DNA of 64,000 nt from Owenia fusiformis (taxonomy: Eukaryota > Annelida > Polychaeta > Sabellida > Oweniidae): the NCBI GenBank assembly GCA_903813345.2, contig CAIIXF020000001.1:41199366-41263365 (forward strand), given 5' to 3'. A program made the position numbers and the translations under genes. Below, in pieces: positions 44,501 through 50,500 of the stretch; positions within the stretch are counted from its first letter, which is position 1; the number at the start of each line of letters is the position of its first letter. The notes beneath the pieces were generated by a model that saw only the letters and a program-made list of their open reading frames with translations, made no database searches and was not told the DNA's origin.

Positions 44501-47500
44501 ACATTAAGGATGGCCTTCCGTTCATATCACTGTTTTAGAATATTGATTTATCTTAGCTTCCAATTAAAAAATGGCATCTTATGAAGCAGCGGAAAATGGA
44601 ATACCAGATGATTTTAGAAAAAAAAATTAAAAAGTTAATTATTGAATATAAAATTGTAATCACATATGGTATACCCTACCCCTCGTTCTACTGTTGTCCC
44701 TATAAACTAGTTTGCTGGAATTATTTTGTTTCAGACACTCTCTAGAGTTTATCTTGGGGGAGTAAAATAAGTACTAAGTGAGTTCACTGCACACTAATAA
44801 AGTGGCATCATCTTTCCATTTTCACATGGGGGTAGTGGTATAAACAACAATTTTTTAATATAGTTTGATAGTTAAGCAAAATATGACAAACTGAAATTAA
44901 AACTAACAAAAATTATAAGAGGTAGATTGGTCAAAATTTTAAATATGCTACAGTGGCAACATCTATTCTATCTATGAATAAATTACATAATTCATTGCTA
45001 AAGTGACATATAAATGAACATCAATGATTCTGATAAATCGACAATTTTTGAGTTGGGGCAATCTGCACAAGGTTTGATTTTTACTTGGATCGGTTTTTCG
45101 CACATGTGAACAAATGAAAGTACTTCATTCCCATGATTCAAACAGCTTTTCTGCAATTGGTTCAGTTTTAGTTTATATACCAAACGAAAGCTTATTGTCA
45201 AGGAATAGAGAACATACATTGTAGAGAGTTTCATACTGTAATGAATATCAAATTTTGACTTTTTCAGCTTTATCCATTTCAATTTTTGCTCATTCTACCT
45301 TATGAAGGCGCTTATTAGAATAGTCTAAATGAGATATTTTTAATGCGCTAATGACAGAGAATATGATAATTGTATTTTTGATATATTGTGTAGTGTAGTG
45401 AAGTGTAGTATTGTATAAAATGTGCATACATGCAGTAACAGGTGTACCTCATTTACGAATTACTTACATCTTTCGCCAAACTCTGCAAAGCACAATGCTG
45501 CTGACCTCTGTAGCTCTGTATTGTCAGAGTAAGTGAGGATGCAAAGGGCTCTGAACCTCTCCTCATTGATGCTGGGATTGATATTCTCCTCTGAAAGCAA
45601 GACAAAGCATCAGCATGCAAGCAGAATGGAATATAAAGCAGTCCCGGGAGCATTTCAGTATTATCACCCATCAATGGTCAATATATTTATCAATAAATTG
45701 CAATTATAACTCTGATGAATAACGTTCTTATCATTGTAAAAGGCTATTTAAATCAAAGTGAGACCAATTTTAAACAACAATATGGCATGGTTGAAAATAT
45801 AACAGTTTATTGACTGCAAATGAGTGATAATACAGCAGTTAAACCTGTAAAATAAATAAAAATCTATATACTCAGAGTATATATAGAGATTATCCTATAT
45901 GAAGTTCAGGATATTGGGATTATCCCGAGGCTAATATAATATATCTGCCCGAGGGACATAGTAGGTAGATTTATCCTACACTTAGTGTACTAAATGTATA
46001 ACATTAAAAAATAAATTTGATATTTATTGGCAAAATGAATAACCGGAGGATATCGTGACAATATACTCCGGAAAACCCAATATGCAGAGAATATTGTGAC
46101 GATATACTCCGCTTGTTGATTTCCCGCCAATTTGACTCTATTTGGCATGAAATTCATTTTGCAATGATATTATACATTAAGTTCACACTCCTTGTAAGTA
46201 TATGCACTCGTTCGTTTTGCTCTCTCGTGCAGATATCAATATCACCTCGTAGATAAAAATGATATTCCTCAAAATCATAGGATATCCTATAAGTATTATA
46301 TTGGCCAAGGGAAAATCCCAATATCCTGAAATGACTATAGGATGATCTGTTTATCCCATATCAATCTTGTTCATTTGGTTCACATTGTCTAAGTGGCCAC
46401 AAACCAAGGAATTATTTTAGAGTATTCATGTCCAGTTTTGTTTTAGTGGCCCTGGACACACGGGATGTCATCGCCTGATTTGGTCAATGTTAGGGAGCAG
46501 GTCGTTTTTACAATAAATTTCAATTTTTTCACACAAAATATTTTTTTACTGAAAAACTGCTCATTCGCAGAGAAAATGTACTAGCACATGCAATGACAAT
46601 GTCAATCACGCTTCTGTACGAAATTCGGCGGAAGTCTTTTATAATCTAATACGAAGTTACTAAAAAAGGCGCGAACGCCCTACACTCAAAATGATCGTTT
46701 TTCCATTATAACTTTTTAACGTAATTTAACGAAGGCTTCTAATTATTATCCAAGATAGTCTAAATACCGATTAAAATATTTCTTACTTCAAACAGATACG
46801 CCGTCTTTTATTCAATTTTTTAAAAAATAATAAAAAATAACTCTTGTCAATGTTAGGGAGCAGTCAATGTTAGGGAGCAAAATGATTTTATCAGAATATT
46901 AAAAATGTAGCAAATGGCCATTTAAAATATGTATGGCATTTATAAACTGAACAATTTTGTTTGTATGATTATTTGATACCCTTTGGGGAGGAAAGCGTTA
47001 AAATTGTAAGAAAATCATTGAAAAGGTTATTTTGCATTTTTTATTTTCAGCTAAATCCTGTTTACGTTCGTTTTAGAAATATTTAGATGCGAACCATTCC
47101 TTCTTTATTCGTTGACCTCTAACTGTAAATGAATGGATGTATCGTTATATACACTTTTTGATGATGTCATCAGTTCACAATCCTAAATTGTGGATGATAA
47201 ATTATCTGAACTGATATATAGGCTTGAGAAATCTCCGACATCCTTCAGTTCTATGATTTGCCAGGAGTTCCAGCACGTCCAGAAGGCCAAAAGAACGCTT
47301 GAAATTTGATATTATTCAACCAAGGTATGATCTTTAAATAGAACTTTAATTGATTATACATACAAGTGGTATTTGAGAAGGATATTCTCAGCTCATCTCT
47401 TGTGCCTTACCTATACTAATTATGTTGCAGGGACCATTTTTTTGACACGGAAGAAAGAAGAAGGGGATACAAAGAACAAACCTTCAAAATGCCTCAACCA

Positions 47501-50500
47501 AGAGGAGTAGCCCCTGGACAAAGACCGATTCGTACACACTATAAAACTGATTTCTCGAAAATAAAGGATTCAGTGAAAATTGGACTTGACATTTCAGATT
47601 AATTTGCAAATTAGTAATTGGTGAAAAAATAACACTTTGGAAAGAAGTTTTAGTTGTTCAAGAGAAGTGACCGTATTTTTTCCTAATATTCAATTTTTGT
47701 GCTGCTTGCTGAGCTATACTTGAAAGACAATCAGCTCAATTTATGTCTATATTTGGGTTGAAAATGTGTGAAGTCCCAAAATGTTTTATTATTCTAACAT
47801 TTCTAAAATATGATTGGACAAAGTTTTAGACTTTCTTTAAGTGTTACCGGTCTATTTCAAAACAATAATTTATATACAAAGATGAGCTCATTTATTTAAA
47901 TACAATATCATGAATAAAGGGAGATGTCATGTAATTATTGTATCTGGTTAAATTGTGTATATTGTGCTGAGCAATACTGTATGCTTGTAAGGTTTATACC
48001 AAGGGGTATAAAACAATCATACAATCTTGTCTAGTTTATAAATGACATACATGTTTGTAAAGGCCAATTACTCTGATATTCTGATAAAACCATTTCGCCC
48101 CACTGCATTGTTTGCTCCGCCACATTGATCATACTTATTAAAGAAAGGTGTACCTGTTTGAAGTAAGAAATATTTCAATATGTACTGAGATTATCCATGA
48201 TAATAATTAACTTTCCTTCGTCAAAAATCTTTGAGGGTCCATTTTCTGAAGATAACAAAAATGCAAAACAATTTGTTTTATCGATTTTGTTAAATTTTGT
48301 TAAGGCAAGGGGTTTAAAATAATCATTCAAACAATATTGTTTAGTTTATAAATGCCATACATATTTTAAATGGCCATTTGCTACATTTTTAATATTCTGA
48401 TAAAATCATTTTGCTCCCTAACATTGACTGCTCCCTAACATTGACAAGAGTTATTTTTTATTATTTTTTAAAAAATTGAATAAAAGACGGCGTATCTGTT
48501 TGAAGTAAGAAATATTTTAATCGGTATTTAGACTATCTTGGATAATAATTAGAAGCCTTCGTTAAATTACGTTAAAAAGTTATAATGGAAAAACGATCAT
48601 TTTGAGTGTAGGGCGTTCGCGCCTTTTTTAGTAACTTCGTATTAGATTATAAAAGACTTCCGTCGAATTTCGTACAGAAGCGTGATTGACATTGTCATTG
48701 CATGTGCTAGTACATTTTCTCTGCGAATGAGCAGTTTTTCAGTAAAAAAATATTTTGTGTGAAAATATTGAAATTTATTGTAAAAACGACCTGCTCCCTA
48801 ACATTGACCAAATCAGGCGATGACATCCCGTGGGACAGATTTTCCTGTTCTTTCTTGGGGGTGACATAAAACCAAATAATAAATATGCAACAGGAATATG
48901 AAGCCATATGGATATCAGAATCATATCAGAAGAAATCCTATCATAAAAAGAGAGCCCATGCTTAATTCTTTTTCAGATGAGTCCAGTCAAAAATGCATCA
49001 AATTGCAAAAATTGGCCAGTGTTTCAGACCAAGTCCCAAGATGTTGCCAGGCATGAAAAAATATCTCAATCCACCATAAATTGTTTGATTAGCCATTTTT
49101 GAACTAAAATGAGGACATATTCATACGTATATCCCCATGTTTACAAATAGCTTAATTTTACTGCCTTTCACTTTTTGAATTCCTGGCTTCACCTTTGCAG
49201 CTCAAAACAAAATACGTAGAAGTGAGTCCAACACAAAAAATTCCGTAATATAACATAGGGCAACCTATCTCATAATCGTGTGCTTCACTGATTAGTGATT
49301 CTGCATAAGTATTTATCATTACAGGCAGTGTCTTTAAATAGGATCAGTGATCTCCCTTATATCAAATTAACAAGGTGCTTTATTTATTATTAGGAAATTA
49401 TCAAGAGCCATGGGGTTGAACATCTTTTTAAAAACAGTAACAGTAAAGTAAAACGTCATGGTGCCAGGTATGGTTACATTTCTAAATCAAAAACAAACAA
49501 GGCATTAACAGGACAAAATGTCACCACCTAAAACAATTTGGTCAATTTAAAGCAAGTTGGAAAATACCTTTTGACCTTAAGAAGGTTTGATTTGAACTTC
49601 TTAGAACATGTAGATGATTTTGAAAAAAAAAATCGTCAATTTGAAGCAAGTTGAAAAAATACCTCTGACTTTTTTTGACATTGAGAAGGTCATTGAAGGT
49701 CAAATGTCAAATGTAAAGTCAGATTTGAACTTCTGAGAACATGTAGATGATTTTGAAAAAAAAATTAAGTAAATTTGAAGCAAGTTGAAAAAAGACCTCT
49801 TTGACCTTTTCAAGGTCATTGAAGGTCAAATGTCAAATATAAAGTCAGATTTGAACTTCTGAGAACATATAGATGATTTTGAAAAAAAAATTAGTCAATT
49901 TGAAGCAAGTTGAAAAAGACCTTTTTGACCTTGAGAAGGTCATTGAAGGTCAAAGGTCAAATAAAAATTTGGTCAATTTGAAGCAAGTTGAAAACAGACC
50001 TTTTTGACCTTTTTTGACCTTGAGAAGGTCATTAAAGGTCAAATGTCAAATCTAAAGTCAAATCTAAAGTCAGATTTGAATTTCTGAGAACACGTAGATG
50101 ATTTTGAAAAAAAAATTTAGTCAATTTGAAGCAAGTTGAAAAAAGACCTTTTTGACCTTTTTTGACTATGAGAAGGTCATTGAAGGTGAAATGTCAAATC
50201 TTAAGTCAAATCTAAAGTCAGATTTGAATTTCTGAGAACACGTAGATGATTTTGAAAAAAAAATTTAGTCAATTTGAAGCAAGTTGAAAAAAGACCTTTT
50301 TGACCTTTTTTGACTATGAGAAGGTCATTGAAGGTGAAATGTCAAATCTTAAGTCAAATCTAAAGTCAGATTTGAATTTCTGAGAACACGTAGATGATTT
50401 TGAAAATTTTTTTTAATCAATTTGAAGCAAGTTGAAAACAGACCTTTTTGACCTTTTTTGACCTTGAGAAGGTCATTGAAGGTCAAATGTCAAATCTTAA

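What the first reader, a model, noticed from the sequence alone, without database searches (positions are those of the whole stretch)
46459..48832. Young 2.37-kb transposon with ~525-bp inverted ends, 5-bp duplication and repeated subterminal motif
Both ends match over ~525 bp, start CACGGGATGTC, and are flanked by GGACA. TCAATGTTAGGGAGCA is present three times per arm. Long arms combined with a 5-bp duplication and a CAC start fit no common superfamily cleanly; Transib/RAG-like elements share the 5-bp duplication and CAC start but not the arm length. This may be an undescribed family of non-autonomous element.
Basis: partly seen in the sequence, partly recalled or inferred. Interest (0 to 1): 0.7.

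Follow-up and report, generated by a model that had tools for sequence, protein, structure and literature searches.

The report
Foldback-like non-autonomous DNA transposon copy
This is a 2.4-kb piece of mobile DNA with long mirror-image ends and no recognisable gene of its own, most likely moved by an enzyme made elsewhere in the genome; it is real, but of an ordinary kind.

Summary
At 46459-48832 lies a 2374-bp element with 527-bp inverted arms, flanked flush by GGACA; no boundary tested gives a longer duplication. A 17-bp motif occurs exactly three times per arm and nowhere else in the window at up to 3 mismatches. No coding capacity was found: 18 of 18 stop-to-stop frames of 40 aa or more (longest 60 aa) lack a transposase match in Pfam.

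New here: the arms are a mosaic. The outer 490 bp differ at 2 sites, but homology continues to about 592 bp with 15 mismatches in 91 aligned pairs. A diverged copy of the inner half of an arm lies inside the right end, and a diverged outer-end fragment lies at 60142-60261. Near-identical arms therefore need not mean youth.

Best reading: a non-autonomous, foldback-like cut-and-paste DNA transposon mobilised in trans by a transposase with a 5-bp stagger. Superfamily is open: CAC...GTG ends and 5 bp fit the EnSpm/Transib clade; 5 bp also fits hAT5. RAG-like ends were tested and not supported beyond CAC. No host genome is held, so copy number, TSD consistency and an autonomous partner are untested.

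The parts
46454..46458 (.). left target-site duplication GGACA
   Evidence: flush with the arm end; longest exact repeat among the boundaries tested
46459..46985 (+). left inverted arm, 527 bp (outer 490 bp near-identical to the right arm)
46986..47050 (+). inner diverged extension of the left arm
   Evidence: pairs with 48246-48305 in a gapped alignment
46483..46499 (+). subterminal motif GTCAATGTTAGGGAGCA, copy 1
   Evidence: exact match
46846..46879 (+). subterminal motif, tandem copies 2 and 3
   Evidence: exact matches; tandem 2.0 x 17 bp
47051..47998 (.). interior without recognisable coding sequence
   Evidence: longest stop-to-stop frame in the element 60 aa, at 47420-47599; no Pfam match above a curated cut-off in 18 of 18 frames of 40 aa or more of the element
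47999..48225 (-). diverged extra copy of arm positions about 267-528, in direct repeat with the right arm
   Evidence: 68% identity, blastn E 4e-28 to the left arm and 2e-29 to the right; alignment
48246..48305 (-). inner diverged extension of the right arm
48306..48832 (-). right inverted arm, 527 bp
48412..48445 (-). subterminal motif, tandem pair in the right arm
48792..48808 (-). subterminal motif, outer copy in the right arm
48833..48837 (.). right target-site duplication GGACA
60142..60261 (-). separate, diverged fragment related to arm positions 7-149 (not part of this copy)
   Evidence: blastn 66%, E 3e-9 (right arm) and 2e-8 (left arm); alignment

Best explanation
A single insertion of a non-autonomous, foldback-like terminal-inverted-repeat DNA transposon. 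Shown: long inverted arms, flush 5-bp target duplication, no recognisable transposase, three identical motif copies per arm, diverged arm pieces inside the element and elsewhere in the window. Inferred: a transposase encoded elsewhere binds the ends, perhaps through the repeated 17-bp subterminal motif; it cuts the element out as DNA and joins it to a target with a 5-bp stagger, which repair turns into GGACA on both sides. Also inferred: the element descends from a longer parent by loss of the coding region, and its outer 490 bp were homogenised between the two arms (gene conversion or template switching) after the inner part had already diverged.
For: Arms and ends; flush duplication, the longest among the boundaries tested, 0.00165 by chance per pair of 5-mers; motif copies; no frame over 60 aa and no transposase match in 18 of 18 frames of 40 aa or more; related diverged fragments point to a family with a history in this genome; abrupt step in arm identity at position 490.
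Against: One complete copy only, so the 5-bp length rests on one insertion. No autonomous partner and no empty site seen: the joined flanks matched only themselves and repeats within the left flank or at 32907-32968, none spanning the junction. The motif is mostly missing in the diverged fragment at 60142-60261 and is altered in the internal arm copy, so its binding role is conjecture. Homogenisation is one reading of the step; ends assembled from different parents would also give it.
Confidence: 0.87

Rival explanations
1. As to superfamily: it is a non-autonomous derivative of a Transib/RAG-like or other CMCT-clade (EnSpm-Mirage-Chapaev-Transib) transposon.
For: CAC...GTG ends and 5-bp TSD; CMCT lineages share CA..TG ends in most cases and have 2-5-bp TSDs (passages of PMC12730594).
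Against: Against the RAG-like branch: beyond CAC, 6 of 14 positions fit the protostome RAGL end consensus of PMC7204232, which 418 of 730 plus-strand CAC-starting 17-mers in the window reach or exceed; the conserved AAA at positions 8-10 is TGT. One Transib element was reported in the mollusc DDE survey PMC10294476 (passages), which bears on this only if the host is a mollusc, a guess. No transposase remnant.
Confidence: 0.3
2. As to superfamily: it is a non-autonomous hAT5-type element (hAT with 5-bp duplications).
For: hAT5 families have 5-bp TSDs and sit inside a lineage with animal hAT families (passages of PMC12730594); hAT is among the richest superfamilies in the mollusc survey PMC10294476 (passages; relevant only if the host is a mollusc).
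Against: hAT ends are usually short and begin CAG-like (recalled, not tested); no hAT remnant in the interior.
Confidence: 0.25
3. As to superfamily: it is a MULE/Foldback-type element; such elements can have long arms, extra arm copies and repeats within the arms.
For: Extra internal arm copy resembles MULEs with tandem or multiple TIRs (passages of PMC3310237); architecture resembles Tetris (passages of PMC4079207).
Against: Those studies report or require 8-11-bp duplications; here only 5 bp match and no exact repeat of 6-11 bp exists at any boundary tested.
Confidence: 0.1
4. The inverted repeat is a local inverted duplication or assembly artefact, not a transposon.
For: One complete copy in the window; interior carries a displaced arm piece.
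Against: Flush, exact 5-bp duplication at the very ends of the arms and an independent diverged fragment of the outer end 11 kb away.
Confidence: 0.03

Closest known systems
Foldback-type elements, e.g. Tetris of Drosophila virilis (PMC4079207, passages)
   Same: long, modular inverted arms with internal repeats; no apparent coding capacity; autonomous partner not found
   Different: Tetris has 8-10-bp duplications and arms up to 1735 bp with about 220-bp tandem units; here 5 bp, 527 bp and a 17-bp motif
[quoted passage not shown]
   Same: additional arm copy inside the outer arm; mostly non-autonomous
   Different: 9-11-bp duplications were required there; here 5 bp, and the extra copy is partial, diverged and on one side only
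RAGL / Transib elements (PMC7204232, PMC9435367, passages)
   Same: 5-bp duplication, ends start CAC
   Different: the rest of the end fits the protostome RAGL consensus no better than background; TIR pairs of deuterostome RAGL elements are said there to be alike only near the heptamer, here the two arms are near-identical over 490 bp
hAT5 (PMC12730594, passages)
   Same: 5-bp duplication
   Different: terminal sequence and arm length of hAT5 not compared here; no transposase to test

Membership tests
Terminal-inverted-repeat (class II) DNA transposon, non-autonomous | inverted repeats at both ends | tested here: met
   527-nt arms, 98%
Terminal-inverted-repeat (class II) DNA transposon, non-autonomous | flush target-site duplication | tested here: met
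   GGACA, one insertion only
Terminal-inverted-repeat (class II) DNA transposon, non-autonomous | no transposase in the element | tested here: met
   longest frame 60 aa; 18 of 18 frames of 40 aa or more, plus one of 32 aa, without a transposase match in Pfam; four rows below the curated cut-offs in two frames
Terminal-inverted-repeat (class II) DNA transposon, non-autonomous | multiple copies with the same ends | tested here: inconclusive
   one complete copy plus one diverged end fragment in 64 kb; no host genome held
RAGL/Transib | 5-bp duplication | tested here: met
RAGL/Transib | ends start CAC | tested here: met
RAGL/Transib | rest of the protostome RAGL end consensus, incl. AAA at positions 8-10 | tested here: not met
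   6 of 14 positions, reached or exceeded by 418 of 730 plus-strand CAC-starting 17-mers; TGT at 8-10. Transib's own end consensus was not tested against a source
RAGL/Transib | RAG1-like transposase in the family | not testable with these tools
   no autonomous copy available
hAT5 | 5-bp duplication | tested here: met
   definition from PMC12730594
hAT5 | hAT transposase and hAT-type termini | not testable with these tools
   no coding sequence; no hAT5 termini at hand
MULE/Foldback | 8-11-bp duplication | tested here: not met
   no exact repeat of 6-11 bp at any boundary tested, and none of 8-12 bp with up to 1 mismatch at symmetric boundaries
MULE/Foldback | long, modular arms | tested here: met

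The most novel reading that the evidence does not exclude
The ends belong to an undescribed transposase lineage that makes 5-bp duplications, recognises a repeated 17-bp subterminal motif and tolerates or maintains half-kilobase arms by homogenisation; this copy is its transposase-less derivative.
Probability: 0.07. Interest if true: 0.5.

Novelty: new member of a known kind. Interest (0 to 1): 0.22.

Why it matters
As it stands it is one more long-arm, transposase-less DNA transposon in an animal-like genome. It matters mainly as a lead: the sharp step in arm identity is a testable sign of arm homogenisation, and the ends and motif are good probes for finding the autonomous partner and settling which superfamily produces 5-bp duplications with such ends.

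Tried and rejected
Host-genome search for further copies: no whole genome is held for this window. The 17-mer in viral contigs: 0 stretches. The 17-mer in genome contigs: 8 stretches, one match each. Aligned to the element, none of the 8 shows arm-length homology; the strongest piece is 39 nt at 82%, E 0.003, in L002, around the 17-mer that selected it, so I take all 8 as chance. Literature search for the end and motif strings: 7 papers hold the 11-mer CACGGGATGTC, 0 hold either 16-mer string; judged from the listing only, none of the 7 is about transposons.

RAG-like ends: rejected beyond CAC and 5 bp. MULE/Foldback membership: rejected on duplication length, though the architecture is alike. 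Interior as a captured gene or transposase remnant: no support. The Pfam rows obtained were DUF5378 (E 0.0027) and CybS (E 0.033) in frame 47331-47507 and DUF6533 (E 0.071) and C8-3_MUC4 (E 0.55) in frame 46946-47083, all four below the curated cut-offs. Frames of 25-39 aa were scanned only in one case (47116-47211); there are 56 frames of 25 aa or more, 18 of them of 40 aa or more. The 60-aa frame had one PDB row at E 0.73. A profile of four arm-derived pieces found those four again, which is no evidence; six further rows had E 0.22 or worse. No tRNA and no Rfam match at gathering score helps to name the host.

Full report
Observation. The element runs from 46459 to 48832 (2374 bp). Its arms, 46459-46985 and 48306-48832, are 527 nt and 98% complementary with 1320 nt between them. 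They start CACGGGATGTCATCGC, a 16-mer found at no third place in the window with up to 3 mismatches. GGACA lies immediately outside both ends. I tested symmetric boundary shifts of +/-12 bases for exact repeats of 3-12 bp: GGACA at shift 0 is the longest, and a 3-bp match at shift -1 is the only other one. Asymmetric shifts of +/-15 gave no repeat of 6-11 bp. Equal 5-mers occur by chance at 0.00165 in this window (200,000 random pairs). The motif GTCAATGTTAGGGAGCA occurs six times, all exact, three per arm; the two inner copies of each arm are in tandem.

Anatomy beyond the finding. A gapped alignment extends the arms to about 592 bp, but not evenly: arm positions 1-490 have 2 mismatches in 490, positions 491-592 have 15 mismatches in 91 aligned pairs, and the alignment has 17 gap columns (Fisher p 3e-11; alignment). 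Inside the right end, 47999-48225 is a diverged (68%) direct repeat of arm positions about 267-528, with a degenerate version of the tandem motif pair at the matching place. About 11 kb away, 60142-60261 matches arm positions 7-149 at 66% (blastn E 3e-9 against the right arm, 2e-8 against the left). That fragment lies about 115 bp past the stop codon of an exon that matches trypsin-like serine proteases (59856-60026, translation ending in a stop; best PDB row E 4.6e-10). It lacks most of the 17-bp motif, and the blastn alignment does not reach the outermost six bases of the arm, which match only in part when aligned. So the ends seem to belong to a family with a history in this genome, but only one complete copy is in view.

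Coding. The longest stop-to-stop frame in the element is 60 aa (47420-47599). There are 56 frames of 25 aa or more and 18 of 40 aa or more. All 18 of the latter and one of 32 aa were scanned against Pfam (9, 10): 17 of 19 gave no row, two gave two rows each, all four below the curated cut-offs (DUF5378, CybS, DUF6533, C8-3_MUC4). The 60-aa frame had one insignificant PDB row (E 0.73). The element therefore appears non-autonomous. A TATA-like stretch and an intron-like layout in the interior were noticed by eye and not tested.

Mechanism. Best reading: cut-and-paste movement in trans by a transposase with a 5-bp stagger. The duplication, the arms and the absence of a recognisable transposase are shown; the source of the enzyme, the role of the motif as its binding site and homogenisation of the outer arms are inferred. 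The step in arm identity has a practical consequence: 2 differences in 490 bp cannot simply be read as age, because the adjoining 100 bp of the same arms differ at 15 of 91 aligned pairs. Either the outer arms were made alike after the inner parts diverged, or the two ends were assembled from different parents; more copies are needed to tell.

Comparison. From passages read: hAT5 elements have 5-bp duplications, and CMCT-clade elements share CA..TG ends in most cases with 2-5-bp duplications (PMC12730594). RAGL ends in protostomes have CAC, a highly conserved AAA at positions 8-10 and 5-bp duplications (PMC7204232). Here CAC and 5 bp are met, but the rest of the RAGL consensus fits no better than background: 6 of 14 positions, reached or exceeded by 418 of 730 plus-strand CAC-starting 17-mers of the window. 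MULE and Foldback elements match the architecture, including extra arm copies, but with 8-11-bp duplications in the studies seen (PMC3310237; PMC4079207), which is not met. I therefore file it only as a non-autonomous TIR transposon of undecided superfamily.

Limits. No host genome is held. The 17-mer was absent from viral contigs, and 8 single matches in genome contigs look like chance. I had no Repbase or Dfam, so 'undescribed' is untested. A paper search by string and searches by structural terms gave no description of this element in the rows I saw: 20 of 56 papers, 1 of 1, 15 of 59, 15 of 102, 10 of 35, 5 of 5. These are listings; passages were read in six papers. The host is probably an animal (trypsin-like exon); a mollusc is a guess from recall of repeat types.

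Noticed in passing
window 38396-43240 (+): Frames with a zinc knuckle (38396-39019) and with reverse transcriptase and RNase H matches (39510-40952), then a 329-aa frame (42251-43240) without a Pfam match that looks by eye like a tyrosine recombinase; together it resembles a DIRS-type retrotransposon (recalled, not tested).
   Followed up: partly
window 60142-60261: Diverged fragment of the same arm family, past the stop codon of a trypsin-like exon and beside an AATAAA at 60125, so possibly in or next to the 3' untranslated region.
   Followed up: partly
window 45881-46354: Imperfect inverted repeat (61-nt arms, 82%) ending about 100 bp left of the element, with related pieces near 32907-32968; perhaps another short inverted-repeat element.
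   Followed up: no
window 28271-30021, 49589-50828 and 24930-25229: Related tandem arrays, many with units of about 124-148 bp and a GTCAAATCT-rich consensus, at three places; short GACGCCG-like repeats lie next to two of them (30121-30162, 50918-50967).
   Followed up: no
window 20811-21782: Inverted repeat with 210-nt arms, 77% complementary, plus a second, overlapping pair; possibly an older inverted-repeat element.
   Followed up: no
window 47212-47599: By eye, a TATA-like stretch, an intron-like segment and a short ATG frame ([19 protein letters not shown]...) in the interior; could be a leftover promoter and leader of the parent element or a captured host fragment. The frame has no Pfam match.
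   Followed up: partly
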